Source: Hawksworthiomyces lignivorus (Eukaryota > Ascomycota > Sordariomycetes > Ophiostomatales > Ophiostomataceae). Taken from it: a stretch of 64,000 nucleotides of DNA. The DNA is taken from assembly GCA_002917075.1 (NCBI GenBank), contig NTMA01000043.1, forward strand, positions 186,001 to 250,000, read 5' to 3'. The notes under the pieces are model-generated. The model ran no database searches and was not told where the DNA came from. It saw only the letters and a list, made by a program, of their open reading frames with translations. Below are positions 48,447 through 59,352 of the stretch, piece by piece. A program made the position numbers and the translations under genes. Positions within the stretch are counted from its first letter, which is position 1. Each line of letters opens with the position of its first letter.

Positions 48447-51400
48447 TTAGCGGCTGTTGCGGCCACGTTCAGGGCAGTTCCTCATATTGTGGCCCGCCCC
48501 TATTTTACCACAAGTTGGACATAGCAATTCTGCTTCGCTATGGGCAAACGGACAATTCTTCCGAAAGCAGTCTCTGTCCGGACAGAATTTGTACTTTGTC
48601 GGCTTCCGGTGGCCGTATACCTTGAAAAAGTCCTCTTCTTTCTTCGTATGACCGTACCTACAGTCACGCTCCTCTCTGCAGTATATTCCCCATGCACATC
48701 TTGTTTGTGACTTTTGCTCGTTCTTTGCCAAGCGACTCCTTTCCTTCTCTAAACGACCTTTCACCTCGACGAAGCCGTCTTCGTCATCGCTGGCTCTGGC
48801 GTTGATATCACTGCCGCTATCTTCGTCGCCGCTTTGAGACGCAATGGATCGTTCTTTGAACCGGTTTGAGATCTTGAGCTCTCCTGAGCCGTTTCTAAAA
48901 TGGCCCTGGGAGTATTCTTGGAAACTGATCACGTCAATTCCAACTTTCTTGAGCTGTGCTTTAGATTCCATAAATAAAGCTTCTCTCTCTTTGTACGCCA
49001 TATCAAACACAGGGATAAGGACAAGATCTTGGCTCGATGCATTCGGGCGCTGCTGTGGGAAGATGTAGCGGTAAAACGGAACATCCAAACTAGAGATAAA
49101 TTCATCAATCTCATCAGCTTTAGGCGATGGGTCGAGGATGACGATGCTATAGGGATCGATGGTATTTCGGTCGACGCGGAACGTATTGTGGCGGAAACCG
49201 ATTTCATCAAGGTAGTCGTCAAGGCAATGTATTGTGACGATTCCGTCTCTTTGCTGGCGCGTGTATACGCTAGAAGGGCTGTCCTTCCATGACCATAGAT
49301 GCACTGGAATCTCGTATTCTCCAATTTTTCTTATCGCAGAGCGCAAGTCAGCTTTTCCGGAAACAAATATAAATCTGCTTGGGATATTTTTATGGCTAGC
49401 GTCAGACGCTTGAGCCACAGACTCGGCAACGATTTCCGTGCCTATTTGTGTTGCGCGCACAGTCAACGAGCTCCGAGAGAATGTCTTCACTTTGATGTCA
49501 TCATGCTCATGCTCTCTCCAAACTGTGTCCACAGGAGGAGGGCTAGAACCATACAAATTGATTTTGACATTGAACTCTTTTACACCCTCTCGCAGCCCAG
49601 AATTTTTCATAATGACACCCTCTAATCGGCCGATATCAAGTCGCCACGTTGGTTCCGTCTTGGCCGCGAAACCCCTTCTTTTGGCAAATGACTTCTGGCC
49701 CTGGATCCATAGATTTGAATTGTCAATGTAGATATGGACATTCTCTCGCTGTTTAACTTGAATCTCTTGTAGTACCTCATCATCTTTAATGGAGGGCTGT
49801 TTGGGGAGGGGAGCAAAGCTCCAGTCAGCATCGTCTTCGGTGTCTGGCACGGCATTCTTCTGGTCGCCATTCATTCTATCATCGTTATCTCCATATGGTG
49901 AGTTGTTGTCTAGATCAGAGCCGTAGGCTTGCCCTAGATCTTGATTTTGAGAAGAGCTCGGATTAACACTTGGATTATCAACATCACTCTTCACGTCGTC
50001 TGCTGAAGCCTCGTTCGCCTCATCCAGAGATACAAAGCGGATGGTCAAAGACATGAGCACCTGCAGATGCGTCGCAATATGCCTTGACATTGTTTCGGAA
50101 AATTTCTGACTGAGCAGAGCTCCACTGTCATCGTCATCGGAAGAATCATAATATGTGCTGTGGGAACTGGGATGCGCCGCTTTACTCGTTCTGGCGCTCT
50201 TAATGGACCCCTCGTATGGTTGTTCTTTCTTTCGCTTGAGCTGGACTTTCTCCACACTACAGCAGCAGAGAGGGCACTCATTCTGGGGTCTTCGCTCTCT
50301 CTTGCCCTGATATGAGATGCGCTGAAGCTGATCAGTCGTATAGAGTTCTGCGTGAGCTTTTTGCATGTGGTCGAACAGAATTTCTCGCTCAGCAAAGCCT
50401 TTCTGCCCACTGTCGCAGATACGGCACACCCAAACGGTAGAGTTGAACGTTTCTTGGTACCAATAGTGGCTGTGTTCTCCCATATGCTTGAACCAGCCGT
50501 CGAACGTTTCGAAGCTGAGAGATTCTCTATTGCAATCCTCCCAGATGCAAATATACGGCTTGAAATCGCGGTCCACATGTCGTCTACGCATAAAGAGTTA
50601 GAATCATATTATACCGCCAGAGATTGCGTCTTGATACGAATGCCTACCTCCAACTACTGCTTTCTATAGTCTCCTTCGACAGAGGTTCTGAACACCATGT
50701 GCATTTGGCAGCATTGACAGATGCTTTATCCGGCGGCTGGGGGTAACTGGCCAGATGAACCTGAACTGAGGAAGCCCTGTGTCTCTGTGTACCTACTTCT
50801 GTTGAACCACGTAGCGCTTTCATGACCGCCGCGTAATTTACAGAAGACAGTTCTGATTGAGAGGTAGATTGAGACGGTTTTTTGATTGGAGTCGCTGACA
50901 TAGGAGTAGTGGTTTTTGGTAAGTCTTTAGGGGGAGGGAGTCGGCTTGTTTGCAATTCGCTTGACTCTTCAATAGTAGACAAATTCTGATGTACATCCGT
51001 GCGACGGGTTTGTAATGTGGACTGGCGAGACCGTTGGCGTAATACCGTATCGTATCGATTAGCCATAGACCTGCTGAGGCGATTTCTCAACTCTTGGTGT
51101 GCATCAGGGTAAAGAGCTTGAATCGCAAAGCCAGATATCATTCCAAATGGCCCTGTGTCATCAGCTGCCTTCGAATTTTTTGACCTGCTTGCACGGGACG
51201 ACCTTCGAATTGCGATTCCTAGCTGATTTAGCTGATCAAGTGCATCTTCAATTTCCTTGAACGGTTCCACATCTAAGTGAGCGGGCGTCTTTTTCGCTGG
51301 CCTTCGTTTAGGGGGATCATGGCTGACGTCGTATCTTCCTCCGGGTCCTAAAACTGTGGCCGCTTTAGAATATGTAACATTGTTACACATATAATAAAAA

Positions 51401-51686
51401 ACGACTTACGCTTATGTAGAATCTTCCACAATACACCCAAAAGGCGAACAACTGTGTCTCTTAGATCAGGTTCGTTTCGGAGTCTCCGGTCGAGGGACTG
51501 GCTCTTGCGAGCGAACACTCCCAGGTAGTTAGCCCATGCCGCAAAACGCTGCTGATAATCTGTGATCAGGCTGGCAACCGCAATCTGCTCTTCTGGTAGG
51601 TGCGGAAGCTCTTTTTCAAAAAGACTCTCGCAGTCGCAGGCGATCTTATAGATGAGGTCTTCATCCTCCTTGGATAATGATTCCAT
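48447..51686 (-). CDS. NYN (PIN-like nuclease) and zinc-finger protein of a fungus-specific family
   Basis: Three exons on the minus strand: 51686-51410, 51347-50648, 50583-48447 (1037 aa). The N-terminal about 92 residues (LITDYQQRFAAWANYLGVFA; LDRRLRNEPDLRDTVVRLLGVLW) match a recurrent fungal N-terminal domain found on NLR-like and related proteins. A C2H2-type finger region of the AcuF-like kind spans C308/C311-H328 and onwards (CTWC...WRRHVDRDFKPYICIWEDC...FKHMGEH...WVCRIC). A NYN domain covers about 608-775, starting VHIYIDNSNLWIQGQK with D613; later acidic positions read TEIVAES and VSGKADL, so the site looks partly altered. The C-terminus has two CCCH fingers (about 955-971, 993-1007) and a CCHC-like knuckle (about 1014-1028), suggesting RNA binding. 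It diverges from the subtilase gene across 440 bp. Nuclease activity is inference. Confidence 0.82.
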
Positions 51687-52125
51687 GGTCAATGGCTTCA
51701 AGATTGTTGCAAAGAGAAGAAACAGTTCAATTGATGCCTAAGCGGTAGACCGAGCCAAATGCGTGGTATAGAAATGCGAGATATAATATTAATTACGCTC
51801 CAGCCAACAATAAATTACCTGCCATGTGATGCATTCGGATCGGGCCTCATCTTAAGCAGCAGTAACCACACAACGTTACGCTCTCGTTATTATGAATTTC
51901 AGTGGAATTATTGCCCTGCATAATTCTCTTCGCCAGAATTAACCGCACTCTGATCTCATTGCAGTACATAAACCAATAGCAGAGCTGAAGTCAAAAGGCG
52001 TCAAGCCTTGCGCGTGGGGTTTGCGTGGGCGGGGGGCATCTAATGAAGACTCAGCTCAGAGTATCTCTTTATTTTTGCATCTTTTTATAAATTTTTCTTG
52101 GATAAAAATAATATGCGAGGATCGC
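51687..52125. other. Bidirectional promoter region of the NYN and subtilase genes
   Basis: 440 bp, AT-rich, between divergent start codons. No repeat or clear operator seen; the arrangement would allow co-expression of the two genes. Confidence 0.45.
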
Positions 52126-55100
52126 ATGGTTACAGAGAGCCTTAATATCGACTACACTGCCGGTTTGTCTCTCGATTTGCCAAACTTAATAGATAGTCAA
52201 CTGTCGCTCCTTCAGGCCAATATCGACCCGGTAAGATGCTGGTTCTGGTCTCGTGCGCCAGCGAATCGAAATTTACACTAACTTTATCGACAAATAGATG
52301 GTTAATCTTTGTGAGTGCGACGACTGGCGCCTGCTTCAAGATCTAAGAGCTTGTCTAGAAGGGAAAAAAGCTCCATACGACCCCAAACAGCTCTCCGCCC
52401 CAGACGACTGGGATCGTGATAATGGGACCTCTCTCGAGTTGTTTGAATCCAAGCTACGTCAAGTATTCAGCACTGCAGAGCTCTCTCTGGATCTGCCAGA
52501 ATCCTCATTCGAATAGTGTCAAGATAGGCTCGAAAAGTTATGCACAGTGTTAGACAGGCTTGTACGATCCAGGTTCATAAGCAGCAGCTCGCCAAAGACA
52601 TTTGCCGCAGATGCGAAGTACCCTCGCTTGCTGGAACTGATCTATTTCCTTCAATCGAATGAGAACCCGGGAGAGTTGTTTGATTTGGTGTACGGGTCGC
52701 ACGAAAGACTGTTTGAGCTCCCTGAAAATACAAAGCAGCTGATAGCGGACGAGGAGACGGTAAAGGAGTGGAATAAGTTCTTAATACAACACAATCCACC
52801 ACATCGAGATCCGCCGCACTGGCCTGAGACAAAAATAGAAAACCGGTCATGGTCCGACGCAAGCCTCCGATATTGTGCCACGAAAGCCTTTGAGACAATC
52901 TTCCAGCGTGTCACTTGTGGCGGATCACATGAGATTCTGCTAAGGCTTCCGGACGAGTCGACTGCAGACGAGCCTTCGTCGAAATTGCACATCTTAATAC
53001 CAAATTGTCCAGCCGTGGATAGCTGGCAAGAGACTTTGTGCGAGCTAGATGGGTAAGATGTCTCGGCCGTTTGGAAATATCATTTTGAATGTGAGCGCTG
53101 ACGGGGAAATAGAGAAGAGAGGTCTAAGAGAGAGATCAGCAGCATTTGCAAAGATCTACAACCCAGACCAGGTCGCAGCAAAAGACTGCGCCTTTTGGTT
53201 AATGGTTGCCAATTGTTCAGCGCATGGGACGATCGGACAATGGCGAACCAATATTTTAAAACATCCAACAAACAGTCTCTCCACGAACTGATCGAAAGCG
53301 GTGTATTCAAATGTCAGAACTCCAGGAGCTTGTCAACCGGGCGACCTGGTAGTCGCTACAACCTCAAAGAAAAGCGGGCTCTGGCCGTTCAGCTCGGGTA
53401 CTGCCTGATGGATTTTTTCGATTACCAGGTAGACTCAAAGGAAATACACTTTTTCGTTCCGGCTGGAGGCAACAGTCGGAATACTGCCCCTTATCGATCT
53501 TTTTCGTCCAATATTTCCGAATCGTCAGAGCTCCGCGTCTTCGACTATGGCCATCCCGTTCTCCTGTCAGTTGCTAAGCTTCTCATAGACATTGACGGAG
53601 AAAGCCTCGAACGGCCTTTCGAGGTTAGCTCTCAACATCGAGAGAATACAGACAACTGGATTGATTTGGTACAATATGTTGAGAAAAAAGTAGTTGAGCA
53701 GCCCGGCCCCTATTATGAAGCCGTGCTAAACTGTCTCAATATCCGACAAGAAATAGCACAATTGCTGCATTTCTCTGATGACTCTGATGGAATCACGGAC
53801 CGGAAGATCAGCAAGAAAATTTATAAAAACGTCGTCTGGAAGCTCAAGCTCGCGCTGAAACAGTCTACTCCAAAAAGAGCACGATCCGAGTCTCCTCCTG
53901 CATCGCCAACCACAACGGAGTATACTACTAGCGCCATTGATGCAGGCGCAAGTCCAAGCCGGAGGACGCAAAACTTGATGATAGCACCAAAGAAACGACG
54001 CACCTTGAATCCCGAAGCACCCGCATTTAGACAGCCTCGATACTCGCCATATGTAGCGCCCCTCGCAGACTATTCATCAAGGTATGGTTTTATAAATGAA
54101 GCTCCAGCCTTTGGCTACGGCAGTTGCTTTGATGACGAAGGCGCTCGTTCAGAAAATTCCCCTGAAACGTAAGTCCGCCATTTGTATCCCCATCCTTTGT
54201 CATTTTTCTTTCCTTTCATTTGGCTCCTGGGGGGAGGATAAGTAGTGACCGCTTCTAACATAATAGGTATGGTTTCGCAGACGCTTTCATGCAGAACCAT
54301 AAATCGATTTATAATAATAAGATTACCTACGTGGAAGACGAACCGGAGCTCACATCCGCTACATCTGGCACCTACCATGCTGGCTATCCTCATAGGAGTT
54401 CCCGGGTCAGAGCCGCCATCCTTGATACTGGCATTGATATGTCTCACGCCGATTCTATCGCAGCATCTGATCGAATAAAGGACATAAGAACTTGGGTAGG
54501 AGGCTCCGGGGGGAAACAAGACCGGAACGCTGGAGACATCTCCGGACACGGAACCCACGTCACACATCTCCTGCTTGACGTGGCACCAGATTGCGATGTC
54601 TATGTTGCTCGCATTGCGGAGCGTAGGCCGGTCAACCCGAGCGAGATTGCAAAGGTATCCAGCCAGACCAGCCCCTTTCTACAGTTATAAAGCGCAGAAA
54701 AATTTGTGAGCATGATCTAACAAGAAATGACTAGGCCATTAGGTATGCCGTAGACAAATGGCAGGTCGACATCATCTCTATGTCCTTTGGCTTCGATAGC
54801 GAGAGGGAGCCAGGCTTTGACGCTCTGAAAGAAGCCTTGAGATATGCGAATTCAAAGAAGGTCCTCATGTTTGCTGCTGCGTCCAACAGCGGCTCGCACA
54901 AGACGCCAGCGTTTCCGGCCCGCCGCGACGATGTTTTTTGCATATCCGCAAACGACGGCAGGGGCAACGACGGGCCTTCGAATCCAACTTCGCGTCGGTA
55001 CTCGACCAACTTCAGTACTCTTGGGGTGGCAGTAGAGTCGGCGTGGCCGAAAGCCTTGTTCACAGTCGATGATCCCCCGGCGAGAGTAGGCGTATATAGG

Positions 55101-55358
55101 AAGCGGCGGTCAGGCAGTTCGTTTGCGGCACCGGTGGCAGCAGGCATAGCGGCGACGGTTTTGCTGTTTGCGAGACAGAATCTCACAGACGAGGAAGCAC
55201 TGCAGTTCAAGGACCGTAGCAAGATGAAAGACATACTGCTCTGTATGTCTGACTTTAGGAAGGAGCATAATGTAATCTCACTAGAATTTTTGAAAAAAGA
55301 CAAGGGCATTGTAGTCCAGACAATGCGGGATATTCTCGACGGGACATGGAAGAAATAA
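52126..55358 (+). pseudogene. Subtilisin-like serine protease with fungal N-terminal helical domain (HET-Q2-like), in-frame stop
   Basis: Five exons, 52126-52230, 52298-53052, 53113-54168, 54267-54654, 54735-55358, keep one frame for 976 codons except for a TAG at 52514-52516 (codon 108). The N-terminal about 480 residues resemble the DUF7580-type domain common on fungal S8 proteases (LRLLVNGCQLFSAWD; SLHELIESGVF; YNLKEKRALAVQLGYCLMDFF). A basic linker leads to a peptidase S8 domain with intact catalytic residues: D692 (AAILDTGID), H733 (SGHGTHV), oxyanion N819 (AASNSG) and S897 (SGSSFAAP). The 3' end faces a gasdermin-like gene, 86 bp away. The stop may be a true null allele; an unlikely alternative is a 54-nt intron ending at that TAG (donor GTATTC, no good branch site). 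Described fungal homologues activate gasdermins by cleavage. Codon use is AT-richer than that of the flanking housekeeping genes. Confidence 0.8.
52514..52516 (+). other. In-frame TAG interrupting the subtilase gene
   Basis: The frame before (LSLDLPESSFE) and after (CQDRLEKLCTVLDRLV) reads as one continuous helical segment in the same frame, so a single sense codon has apparently become TAG. No frameshift is involved. Confidence 0.75.
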
Positions 55359-55444
55359 GCATATAGAAGACGGCAGGCTAGCACTCTAGATAGCAGTTCC
55401 GCAAGACAGAGATCCATAGAATACAAAAACCCACCCTCGTGCCT

Positions 55445-56368
55445 CTACGCATTTTGCGCCCACTCAGAGCAAACACAGATGCACTCTGCGTCGTCATCTA
55501 CGGCCGTCTCCGCGAGTGCCTCCCACCCAAACTCCTGTACCGACGCGTCCTCCGCCGCCACGCCCACGACCTCAAACGGTAGCGCCCCTGCTCTGGCTCG
55601 GTCTGGCCCGCCGTCGTCGCCGTACATGGCGCCAGACGTATACTCGGCGTGCGACACTGCCCCCGTACGGCGGTGGACGATGATCTTGCGCAGCCGAAAC
55701 GCAAACACAAAGTCGGACGAGCCGCCGAACGAGGCGCGCTCACCGGCCCCCCACCCCGCGTGTGCCGCGGGGGCGAGTGGCCCTGGTGCCGCCGCGGTAA
55801 TCGTCGCGGCACCACCGGTGATTATGGCGGCGGCGCCGCCGCCGCCGCCCAGCGCGGCCGCATGGGACCGGCGGGCAGACGTCTTGACGCGGGCGCCGCG
55901 CACAATCTTCAGCGCCGTGACAATGTACACGTGCCTGCGCAGGCGGCTCTTCTCGAGGAAGCGGACGACCTCGGGGGCGGCCGCCAGGCTCTGCTCCAGG
56001 TAGGCGCGCGTGGGCATGAACTCGACCGTCTCGACCGACTCAAACTGGTACTCCTCAGCAGCTTTTGCGTCGTGGCGGATGCTGGCGTCGACGAGGCCGG
56101 CGTCGACGCCCCCGCCGGCGACCGTAGACAGGAACTTGGTCCAGAGGCCGTAGGAGCCCGACCGCTGCTTCTCCCTGCTCCACGTCACGCTCGTCTTGGT
56201 CGTCGCGGGAAAGAGGTCCTCCGCCTGCGGAGGAAGTCGGCTGCTGCCTGCATTCAAAGCTTCGGCAGGTTTGGCCGGAGAGAAGATAATGCTGCCGAGC
56301 TGGATCGGCCCGTCGGGATGGTAGTCCCATGTGGGGCACAGGAAGTAAGTCTTCTTTTGGTTAGACAT
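55445..56368 (-). CDS. Gasdermin-like pore-forming protein (HET-Q1/RCD-1 type)
   Basis: Intronless, 307 aa, minus strand. Fungal gasdermins are cell-death effectors that insert in the plasma membrane, some after protease removal of a short C-terminal piece. The start TYFLCPTWDYHPDGPIQLGS is of the kind seen at the N-terminus of fungal gasdermin-like proteins. The core shows the pattern of the gasdermin pore domain: RRHVYIVTALKIVRGARVKTS (about 145-164), parallel to the YVVTE-L-V strand of animal gasdermins, and SSDFVFAFRLRKIIV (about 217-231), parallel to GSTLAFRVxQL. Between them is an Ala/Gly-rich hydrophobic segment (about 169-206) in the place of the membrane-inserting hairpins. The neighbour, tail-to-tail with 86 bp between stops, is a subtilisin-like protease gene, the classical partner. 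Unlike that neighbour it is GC-rich. No domain search could be run. Confidence 0.75.
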   Translation of the reverse strand: MSNQKKTYFLCPTWDYHPDGPIQLGSIIFSPAKPAEALNAGSSRLPPQAEDLFPATTKTSVTWSREKQRSGSYGLWTKFLSTVAGGGVDAGLVDASIRHDAKAAEEYQFESVETVEFMPTRAYLEQSLAAAPEVVRFLEKSRLRRHVYIVTALKIVRGARVKTSARRSHAAALGGGGGAAAIITGGAATITAAAPGPLAPAAHAGWGAGERASFGGSSDFVFAFRLRKIIVHRRTGAVSHAEYTSGAMYGDDGGPDRARAGALPFEVVGVAAEDASVQEFGWEALAETAVDDDAECICVCSEWAQNA

Positions 56369-57154
56369 GACTGTTCACGATCTAAGGATCTGGCCCTGCA
56401 AACTGTTATTGCCGATGCGGTAAATCACTTCTCATATCGTCCAAGTACAGCTCATGCCATCGAGACTAATTCTCGTTGTCCGAGCCATAGCAGATTCTTG
56501 GCACTCACCCGCCGCGCGAGCACGAGTGCCAGAGCCTTGCTGAACGCCTTGTCCAGCCTCACACCCCACTTTGTGATGAAAGATGCACTTTTCCCCCGCC
56601 CTGGAAATGTCTCTGGCATTTCGTACTCTGAGCTTTACAGCTATGCAGTGGATTCCCGACGGATGTCTTGCCAAGAGAGCATCAGCTACACGTGGATAAT
56701 GCCCTTGTTTACCGCTTTGTTGTTAGAGCATAAGCCATCAAAGTCACTGTTTCCCCTCACAGAGTGCTACACAGCGACTCGAAAGTTAAGGGAGCATTGC
56801 ACATTTAGAATACATCTCATCTTTTTGGCATTGTTTGGCACATTTTCTTTTATTACCCTCGTACTTGTATATACACTTTCAGCAAAAAAAGCAAAGCTCA
56901 ACGTGCCATAGCACGGACCCGAGCACACCCAAGACAAAAAAAAAAAAAAGAAACCGGCACAATGAGAGCTGGCACGGACAGACGTCGTAAAATGGTAGGC
57001 AGCGTGTGTGTGGCCTACAGCAGACGGATCGAGGCATCGTCTGCATGGTAAAATGTTGGTAGTATGCATGACATAAAGGACTTTTTGGCCTTGTTAGTTT
57101 TGTACACCGCGAGCGCTTCTCACTTCTGCTTCTCGCTTTCTCTCACTCTCGCTT
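56369..57154. other. Intergenic region upstream of the gasdermin-like gene
   Basis: 790 bp holding the promoter of the gasdermin-like gene and the 3' region of KEX1; an A homopolymer lies at about 56937-56950. No gene recognised. Confidence 0.4.
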
Positions 57155-59352
57155 CTACCGCCCGTCGGCACCGTCGGCACCATTAGCGCCGTTGGCGTCC
57201 TTCTTCTTGCTGTCCGCGTCCTCCTCGTCCTCCCCGCTGTCCCCGCCCACGCTGTAGCGGTGGTCCTCCTCCGTCGGCGTGACCACGTGCAGGTCGTCCA
57301 GCTCGCTCTCGTCAAAGTCGCCGGCCTCGAGGTCGCGGTTCGACCGGCGGATGCGGAAGTTCTCCAGCCGCGAGCCGCTGCTGCCATTGCTTCCGCCGCT
57401 GCCGCCTTGGGCCATGGGCAGCCGCGTGTCGGACGAGGAGCCAGGGCCCGTGGCCACGCCGCGGTAGCCGGCGAGGCGGCCGCGGCGGCGGTCGCGCCAG
57501 ACGTACCAGCCCCAGGCGACGGCGGCGACGGCGACGATGACGAGGACGATCTCGCCGCTCTTGCGGTAGGCCTGCCACTTGGCGGCGTCGAGCTTGGCCT
57601 TCTCGGCGTCCTGAGCAGGCCCGCTGCTGCCAGCACCGGAGCTGCCGGTGCCAGAGCCAGAGCCAGAACCGGAGCCGGAGCCGATGGCGCCGCCGACGGT
57701 GGTCTCGGGCCCCTTCTCGCCGTCGAGGCGCGAGTCGGCAGGGGTGCCGCCGATGCTGCGGATGTCGACGCCCATGACGCGGTCGAGCATGTCGCGGGTG
57801 CGCCGCGGGTAGTCAAAGGGCACCATGTGGGACGAGTTGTAGAAGAGCACGTAGGTCAGGTTGCGGGCCTCCTGCCAGAAGCCGGCCTTCTCGCCCTCAA
57901 AGGTCCACTCGCGGCGCGGGGCCCAGTTGCCGGGCGACAGCTCGAAGCCCTTGCCGCCGTTCCACTGCATGTTGTTGATCAGGGCCTCGGTGCCCAGGTG
58001 GTTGCAGATCATGTCCTCGGCGCCGGAGAAGAGCACGGCGGGCACCTCGGCTAGCAGGTTAGGCAGGAAGGTGATGGCCGGGGCGGACTGGCGGTCGCGG
58101 AACTGCGAGCCGACGTTGCCGTTGCACTCGGACCAGCCTGTGTTCTTGTTGGGGTTGATGTGCAGGGCGGAGACGACGTCGGGCCGGCGCAGGTAGGGTG
58201 TCAGCTTCGTGAGGTCCGGGGGCCAGTTCATGCCGCAGCTCGGGTAGGAGTCGCGCAGGCGCACGTCGTACATGTTGAGGCAGTCCTGGTCGTCGCCCTT
58301 GTTGCGGTTGGTCAGCTGCAGCAGCTGGGTCAGAATGGCCTCGCAAGACGGGGTGTCGACACTCTGGGGGGAGGCGGTGCTCAGGTCCTTCTCGCAGATG
58401 CGGCGCTGGGTCTCGAGGCGGTTGGCGGCAACGGAGCCCTTGGAGATGATGTTCTTCTCGTAGGCAAAGTCGAGGTACGCCTCATACTGCTCGGCCGGCG
58501 AGATCCAGCCGTTGCCGATGAGCATGCCCTTGAGAGCCCAGACGTGCTTTGTGTCGGGCTTCTTGTTCCGGTCGAGGATGTACTTGGCGATGTAGGGGAT
58601 GTGCTGGCCGGCAAACGACTCGCCGGCAAGGTAGAGCTGCAGCTGTTAGCTTCTATTGTCCTGCATGCTTCTTCTTTCACCTCTATCCCACTCTTGTTCG
58701 TTGTCTTCCTCCTCTATATATAAGACACGTACATCATCGTGCTCGTACTCGGGAAAAAGGGCGAACCACTTCTCCAGGAAGGTGATGAACTGCTTGGCCA
58801 TCTCATCTAGCTCGTGGACGTAGCTGTCTGTGTTGACGTAGCTGAAGCCGGTGCCGACGGGATTGTCGACGAACATGATGTTGGCGAACTCGTTCCAGGA
58901 GCCGTCGTTGTACTCGAGGGTGTTTTCGTCCTTCATGCGGTAGGGCCCGACCTCCATCAGGGCGCCGTCCTCGGAGCTGCAGCCGGGGCCGCCGTTGAGC
59001 CAGATGACCGTCCGCTGCCGGTTGGCAATGTGCTTGTTCTGGAAATGCCAGAAGAACATGTTGCCGTTGTGCTCCGGGGTAACCTCGATGTGGCTGAGCG
59101 TGTTAGTTTTCCTTGTCTCTCTCAGGGCGTCCATGACTTCCCCCCCTTTCATTCCCGCCTCTTCTGCTCTTCCACTCACCCAGCATGCATCTTCACCAGG
59201 GGCCCTTCTGGTGCGCCTGGCAGAGAGTGCACGAAATAATCAGCGGCCGAGGCCGCAGATGCGCCGCCAATCCATACGGAGGAGACTGCCACAGCCGCCG
59301 CAGCGAGGGCAGGCCACCGCCGCCACGATGACGGGCGCACAGCTGCCACCAT
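57155..59352 (-). CDS. KEX1: Pheromone-processing carboxypeptidase KEX1
   Basis: Serine carboxypeptidase of the trans-Golgi that trims basic residues from propeptides after Kex2 cleavage. Three exons on the minus strand: 59352-59180, 59093-58733, 58636-57155 (671 aa). A signal peptide is at residues 12-35 ([21 protein letters not shown]). Motifs in order: [32 protein letters not shown], the catalytic Ser S185 in [18 protein letters not shown]386 in [15 protein letters not shown] and H448 in [21 protein letters not shown] Gly/Ser-repeat linker (about 496-518), a TM helix (about 540-558, [18 protein letters not shown]) and an acidic cytosolic tail complete the KEX1 layout. The last intron has two nearby acceptors (AACAG and CTGCAG, six bases apart); the downstream one gives the usual family sequence. 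Confidence 0.94.

What the first reader, a model, noticed from the sequence alone, without database searches (positions are those of the whole stretch)
52126..56368. Gasdermin-like gene paired tail-to-tail with a subtilisin-like protease gene: a candidate het-Q-type cell-death module
Seen: a 307-aa minus-strand product has an N-terminal signature typical of fungal gasdermin-like proteins and two core strands that parallel the animal gasdermin pore domain; 86 bp away ends a plus-strand gene with an S8 peptidase domain and intact Asp/His/Ser. Known: in Podospora anserina the HET-Q1 gasdermin is cleaved by the subtilisin-like HET-Q2 encoded next to it, and most fungal gasdermin genes are clustered with protease genes; Neurospora RCD-1 is in the same family. 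Inference: this locus is, or was, an allorecognition or immune cell-death module.
Basis: partly seen in the sequence, partly recalled or inferred. Interest (0 to 1): 0.9.

Follow-up and report, generated by a model that had tools for sequence, protein, structure and literature searches.

The report
Fungal gasdermin module with third gene
Next to a real fungal cell-death pore gene and its interrupted protease gene sits a third gene, a zinc-finger protein that accompanies this kind of protease and in some related loci carries an NLR-type sensor domain, so some fungi may run a three-part death pathway laid out like the mammalian inflammasome.

Summary

The new part lies outside the given coordinates. 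A divergent C2H2 zinc-finger gene (48447-51686, -) lies 611 bp from the protease start. All 5 DUF7580 loci found in the genome have such a partner, and one zinc-finger query finds exactly those 5. Behind the zinc fingers the partners differ: NB-ARC (NLR type) in two, ankyrin in one, weak NYN-like here. Two of the 5 loci have a gasdermin. In Cephalotrichum gorgonifer, gasdermin DNG_05168 and zinc-finger-NB-ARC protein DNG_05166 are two tags apart. I read this as sensor or regulator, protease, pore. Cleavage, the partner's role and allorecognition are inferred. RNA editing of the TAG is not supported.

The parts
55445..56368 (-). Fungal gasdermin (fGSDM), 307 aa, one exon
   Evidence: ORF; RCD-1 relatives; 33 homologues at E<=0.01; AlphaFold2 pLDDT 78.1; Foldseek and VIA
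55448..55573 (-). Candidate inhibitory C-terminal tail, residues 266-307 (42 aa, 4.4 kDa), after conserved Phe265
   Evidence: Phe in 19 of the 30 aligned sequences with a residue there; HET-Q1 P1 F238 and 40-residue tail from PMC10989679 passages. Cleavage here is inferred
55769..55843 (-). Gly/Ala-rich expanded tip of the second membrane hairpin (residues 176-200), GC-triplet-rich DNA
   Evidence: alignment; pLDDT below 50; hairpin assignment by analogy with known gasdermins (recalled)
52298..55358 (+). DUF7580 + Peptidase_S8 protease gene, about 942 codons by summing exons approx. 52298-53054, 53112-54171, 54268-54655, 54735-55358
   Evidence: colinear with the C110 paralogue exon by exon; no transcript data
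52514..52516 (+). In-frame TAG in the first coding exon, inside a stretch of equal length in the C110 paralogue (no net gap)
54268..55358 (+). S8 peptidase domain exons; Asp 54424-54426, His 54547-54549, Asn 54885-54887, Ser 55119-55121
51687..52297 (.). 611-bp intergenic region between the divergent start codons of the zinc-finger gene and the protease
48447..51686 (-). C2H2 zinc-finger partner gene, 1037 aa, open; exons 51686-51410, 51347-50648, 50583-48447; weak NYN-like segment and Cys/His-rich C-terminus
   Evidence: model; PF17017 E 0.0014 and PF01936 NYN E 0.035, NYN E 0.0088 on the piece, each below its curated cut-off; relatives

Best explanation
This is a fungal gasdermin cell-death module of three genes. 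A C2H2 zinc-finger protein with an exchangeable C-terminal part (NB-ARC/TPR, ankyrin or NYN-like) is the sensor or regulator. It lies head-to-head with a DUF7580-S8 protease gene, across one intergenic region. On a trigger, the protease cuts the neighbouring gasdermin near a conserved phenylalanine about 42 residues from its end; the freed N-domain forms plasma-membrane pores and kills the cell or fusion compartment. Shown here: the predicted gasdermin fold, the S8 domain with its catalytic residues, the gene order, and the repeated linkage of zinc-finger and DUF7580 genes. Inferred: cleavage, pore formation, the partner's role and the trigger. The window copy of the protease has an in-frame stop, so this copy is probably silent; at C132 the S8, gasdermin and zinc-finger-NB-ARC frames are open, though I did not work out the full C132 protease model.
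For: Gasdermin. Protease domains and catalytic residues. Second module at C132 (zinc finger-NB-ARC-TPR, DUF7580-S8, gasdermin). Partnering: 5 of 5 DUF7580 loci found have a divergent zinc-finger gene; the C153 zinc-finger piece returns exactly those 5 genes at E<=0.001. Other species: C. gorgonifer gasdermin DNG_05168 and zinc finger-NB-ARC DNG_05166 on a contig of the same length; 5 of the 8 sources that appear in two of the three homologue lists have the two proteins on contigs of identical length (matched by eye). Tail length and Phe position resemble HET-Q1.
Against: The in-frame TAG. C110 has zinc finger and protease but no gasdermin hit at E<=0.1 in 16 kb; C153 and C152 have no S8 hit, though C153 ends at a contig end. 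The window's own partner gives no NB-ARC match, and NB-ARC is annotated in only 1 of the 34 zinc-finger homologues, ankyrin in 3 and FHA in 8. The N-terminal piece of the C153 partner finds only itself. In 3 of 8 sources the two relatives are on contigs of different length. The five loci probably arose by duplication and are not independent. No expression, cleavage or death data.
Confidence: 0.6

Rival explanations
1. Ordinary two-gene gasdermin/Q2L-protease cluster; the zinc-finger gene is a hitch-hiking neighbour that was duplicated together with the protease and has no part in cell death.
For: Gasdermin-protease pairs are the common fungal arrangement (PMC10197012, section 15); C110 shows that zinc finger and protease were duplicated as a block.
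Confidence: 0.2
2. The zinc-finger protein is a transcription factor that switches the shared intergenic region, like ZAO in the OLD-ZAO antiviral pairs, rather than a sensor that acts on the protease.
For: C2H2 zinc fingers and divergent starts in 5 of 5 loci; ZAO binds its own locus (PMC12754623, first of three parts read).
Against: NB-ARC/TPR or ankyrin parts in the partners at C132, C152, C110 and in P0089 are receptor-like; no OLD deaminase on this contig among 8 found; module zinc-finger pieces found no zinc finger in about 10 kb around each of the 8 OLD loci, only ankyrin repeats at one.
Confidence: 0.3
3. The window module is a dead allele: the TAG is an ordinary null mutation, as expected for death genes under birth-and-death evolution.
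For: TAG inside a stretch of equal length in the paralogue; the UAG adenosine is in a predicted hairpin loop in 0 of 5 fold windows; 0 of 53 in-frame intron combinations over it have a GTRNG donor.
Against: No second disablement was seen: the other exons are open and the catalytic residues intact; RIP criteria are met in 0 of 127 windows. A sequencing error is not excluded.
Confidence: 0.6
4. The UAG is a regulated stop: A-to-I editing, read-through, a weak 54-nt intron, or re-initiation at a downstream ATG makes the protease only in certain states.
For: UAG premature stops are edited in ascomycete genes, also in an antiviral zinc-finger gene (PMC11156358 and PMC11169179, passages; PMC12754623, first of three parts); 3 of the 14 homologues viewed (P0037, P0038, P0041) are annotated as starting only inside DUF7580, not counting P0049, which is labelled partial.
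Against: The UAG adenosine is in a predicted hairpin loop in 0 of 5 windows, while at three of those sizes 19, 12 and 3 of the 34 TAGs of the same exon string are; the possible 54-nt intron has a weak donor and would remove residues that align in the paralogue.
Confidence: 0.08

Closest known systems
HET-Q1/HET-Q2 of Podospora anserina
   Same: Fungal gasdermin beside an S8 protease; similar gasdermin length (278 vs 307 aa) and a Phe about 40 residues from the C-terminus.
   Different: HET-Q2 has 388 aa; here the protease has about 942 codons with DUF7580, an in-frame TAG in this copy, and a zinc-finger neighbour gene.
RCD-1-1/RCD-1-2 of Neurospora crassa
   Same: Closest solved relatives by sequence and fold.
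   Different: RCD-1 works by two allelic variants without cleavage (PMC12881547, passages); here a protease gene is adjacent.
Q2L protease/fGSDM clusters
   Same: About 80% of fGSDM genes lie beside protease genes, about 63% S8 (PMC10197012, section 15). [quoted passage not shown]
   Different: Section 15 of PMC10197012 describes two-gene clusters, some with the protease inside the receptor; the passages I saw name no zinc-finger partner. At C132, and by tags in C. gorgonifer, an NB-ARC protein is encoded apart from the protease.
OLD-ZAO antiviral gene pairs
   Same: Zinc-finger gene beside its partner gene; a UAG premature stop in one gene of the unit.
   Different: No OLD deaminase on this contig; the stop is in the protease, not the zinc-finger gene; hairpin preference not met.
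TPR-CHAT protease/gasdermin pair
   Same: The genome also holds a TPR-CHAT protease divergent from a gasdermin-like ORF (C1).
   Different: Different protease fold; no zinc-finger hit on C1.

Membership tests
Fungal gasdermin (fGSDM) | Sequence homology to RCD-1/HET-Q1 | tested here: met
   RCD-1-1 E 3.3e-6, RCD-1-2 E 8.5e-6; HET-Q1 itself was not compared
Fungal gasdermin (fGSDM) | Gasdermin N-domain fold | tested here: met
Fungal gasdermin (fGSDM) | Short C-terminal segment removed by proteolysis | not testable with these tools
   Segment and Phe265 present; cleavage needs a bench test
het-Q system | Adjacent S8 subtilase gene | tested here: met
   86 bp away, tail to tail; catalytic residues intact
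het-Q system | Compact HET-Q2-like protease (388 aa) with open frame | tested here: not met
   About 942 codons with DUF7580 and an in-frame TAG
het-Q system | Incompatibility between natural strains | not testable with these tools
   No population sequence or crosses at hand
NLR-protease-gasdermin (inflammasome-like) pathway | Separate NB-ARC/NACHT sensor gene with protease and gasdermin | tested here: not met
   Not met in the window: the partner gives no NB-ARC match. Present at C132 (NB-ARC E 3.6e-5, 23.6 bits against cut-off 23.5, plus TPR)
OLD-ZAO | OTT_1508-type deaminase next to the zinc-finger gene | tested here: not met
   PF14441: 8 loci, none on C130
OLD-ZAO | UAG in an RNA hairpin loop | tested here: not met
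   0 of 5 fold windows; a prediction only
OLD-ZAO | Zinc-finger protein homologous to ZAO | not tested
   No ZAO sequence was at hand
DUF7580 (PF24476) | Match above Pfam cut-off | tested here: met
   161.1 and 56 bits against cut-off 27; its fold is unresolved (pLDDT 50.1)

The most novel reading that the evidence does not exclude
Fungi carry an uncontracted, inflammasome-like pathway encoded as one gene cluster: a zinc-finger NLR (or ankyrin/NYN variant) as sensor, a separate DUF7580-S8 protease as its relay, and a gasdermin, with sensor and protease expressed from one intergenic region and the sensor's C-terminal part swapped between loci.
Probability: 0.35. Interest if true: 0.85.

Novelty: new variant of a known kind. 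Interest (0 to 1): 0.62.

Why it matters
What triggers the protease-bearing receptors that activate fungal gasdermins is stated as an open question in the review PMC12881547 (passages). A linked candidate upstream gene, in some loci of NLR type, makes that testable. It would also mean that the layout of sensor, separate protease and gasdermin exists in fungi as one gene cluster, whereas some of the described fungal clusters have the protease inside the receptor (PMC10197012, section 15).

Tried and rejected
RNA editing of the UAG: unsupported, because the adenosine is in a predicted hairpin loop in 0 of 5 windows. RIP as cause of the stop: criteria met in 0 of 127 1-kb windows, composite index above 0 in 2. 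A clean intron over the stop: 0 of 53 in-frame GT/GC-AG combinations of 40-150 nt have a GTRNG donor; one weak 54-nt candidate (52463-52516) remains. OLD deaminase neighbour: none on this contig; module zinc-finger pieces found only ankyrin repeats, at one of the eight OLD loci. DUF7580 fold: model too poor (pLDDT 50.1), so no fold search was made; a profile search of A2 showed only subtilisin-type hits to the S8 part in the best 60 of 160 rows, so kinase likeness stays untested. NYN segment: weak Pfam match, no meaningful PDB relative. Zinc-finger controls: (N-terminal piece of the C153 partner) found only itself; (C152 query, E<=1) found 5 places, of which C26 and C109 are not among the DUF7580 loci and look by eye like other zinc-finger proteins, and it did not reach C110 or C130. 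The C-terminal part of the window partner also matches C57 and C45.

Literature for the three-gene arrangement: searches (DUF7580, 0 papers; 0; none of 8 listed papers holds 'oxidoreductase acuF'; 5 papers, listing only; 2 papers, listing only) showed none that describes it; in PMC9815663 'zinc finger' and 'C2H2' occur 0 times in the main text. PMC12881547 does mention two- or three-gene clusters in general (passage). Clave et al. 2022, the key paper, is not held, so this does not show that the arrangement is unpublished. The label 'acuF-like' used in my notes is recalled and comes from no call.

Rows dropped: alignment A1 used 30 of 33 gasdermin homologues (P0016, P0017, P0020 left out); A2 used 11 of 35 protease homologues; 14 of 35 protease homologues and 5 of 34 zinc-finger homologues were read. 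The genome search counts are lower bounds by the tool's own note.
Full report
What was checked. The assembly has 43.7 Mb in 191 contigs; the window is C130:186001-250000. The species was not identified; named sources of gasdermin homologues are fungi such as Cephalotrichum, Parathielavia, Ophiocordyceps, Cytospora and Gaeumannomyces.

The tail. Phe265 is followed by 42 residues (4.4 kDa); the column is Phe in 19 of the 30 sequences with a residue there. HET-Q1 is reported to be cut at P1 residue F238 with loss of 40 residues (PMC10989679, passages). That Phe265 is the cut site is inference.

The protease. The gene runs about 52298-55358 in four exons and carries DUF7580 (PF24476) and Peptidase_S8, with intact catalytic Asp, His, Asn and Ser. 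The C110 paralogue aligns exon by exon, 38-59% identical; its own model needs one GC-AG intron. The in-frame TAG at 52514-52516 falls inside a stretch that has equal length in the paralogue. Relatives without that stop exist (C110 and database homologues). I saw no other disablement. RIP, a clean intron and an editing hairpin were tested and not supported.

Other loci. Searching the genome with the gasdermin gives one other hit at E<=0.001, C132:9475-10233 (E 1e-26), which lies 3' of a DUF7580-S8 gene on the same strand. C110 holds the closest protease paralogue but no gasdermin hit at E<=0.1 in 16 kb. A weak gasdermin-like ORF sits at C1 (E 0.0044; hhalign probability 84%; no PDB match at E<=10) divergent from a TPR-CHAT protease (CHAT E 1.8e-37).

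The third gene. The gene divergent from the protease is an open 1037-aa zinc-finger protein (48447-51686). C110 and C132 have relatives in the same place. Its N-terminal piece finds, at E<=0.01, only C130, C110 and C132. The DUF7580 search finds five loci, and the other two, C153 and C152, also have a divergent zinc-finger gene. The C153 zinc-finger piece returns five genes at E<=0.001, exactly the five partners; its N-terminal piece returns only itself. The C152 query at E<=1 returns three partners and two others, C26 and C109, not at DUF7580 loci. So 5 of 5 DUF7580 loci found have the partner, and 5 of the 7 places hit together are partners. Start-to-start distances, are 612 (C130), 409 (C110), 630 (C132), 590 (C153) and 1491 (C152) bases. 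The loci probably arose by duplication, so these are not five independent events; they show linkage kept through divergence.

Domain swapping. Behind the zinc fingers, C132 has NB-ARC (just above cut-off) and TPR, C110 ankyrin repeats, C152 NB-ARC (E 7.1e-16), the window a weak NYN-like segment and a Cys/His-rich end, and C153 nothing further recognised. Among the 34 database homologues, NB-ARC is annotated in 1, ankyrin in 3 and FHA in 8. DUF7580 homologues carry S8 or, in Stachybotrys elegans and Dactylonectria estremocensis, a nucleoside phosphorylase domain; a close S8 relative in Trichoderma gamsii lies in a protein annotated with PF24883 and PF25053, the former recalled as NACHT-type.

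Other species. The protein search gives no context, but contig lengths and tags do. That is 5 of 8. Equal length is strong but indirect evidence of one contig, and nearness is shown only by the C. gorgonifer tags; the gene between them was not seen.

Mechanism. The most likely reading is sensor or regulator (zinc-finger protein), relay (DUF7580-S8), executioner (gasdermin). Reviews describe two-gene clusters, some with the protease inside the receptor (PMC10197012, section 15), and mention two- or three-gene clusters in general (PMC12881547, passage). At C132 and, by tags, in C. gorgonifer, an NB-ARC protein is encoded apart from the protease, which is the mammalian layout. The window copy has a partner without a detected NB-ARC and a protease with a stop, so it is the less likely of the two gasdermin-bearing modules to work.

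Verdict. Observation confirmed; interpretation partly supported; new variant of a known kind; interest 0.62. The claim that the zinc-finger gene is a working part rests on linkage alone.

Noticed in passing
G000:C1 about 1056700-1062030 (L037, L039): TPR-CHAT protease (CHAT E 1.8e-37) divergent from a gasdermin-like ORF: a probable second class of gasdermin module in the same genome.
   Followed up: partly
C110:61500-71000 (L012): DUF7580-S8 protease with a zinc-finger/ankyrin partner but no gasdermin hit; its first intron appears to use a GC donor.
   Followed up: partly
55769-55843: GCC/GGC-rich stretch coding a Gly/Ala-rich insert, longer than in most aligned homologues; could be length-polymorphic.
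   Followed up: no
48447-58525: GC contrast: gasdermin GC3 0.81 and carboxypeptidase-like exon 0.93 against 0.48-0.61 for the zinc-finger and protease exons measured.
   Followed up: no
57155-58525: Serine carboxypeptidase (S10, E 1.1e-40) with a C-terminal hydrophobic segment (by eye), next gene beyond the gasdermin; resembles Kex1 by recall.
   Followed up: no
P0044, P0045: DUF7580 fused to a nucleoside phosphorylase domain in Stachybotrys elegans and Dactylonectria estremocensis, on contigs of the same length as zinc-finger relatives P0088, P0086.
   Followed up: partly
P0037, P0038, P0041: Three of 14 viewed protease homologues are annotated as starting inside DUF7580; their upstream DNA may also hold stops.
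   Followed up: no
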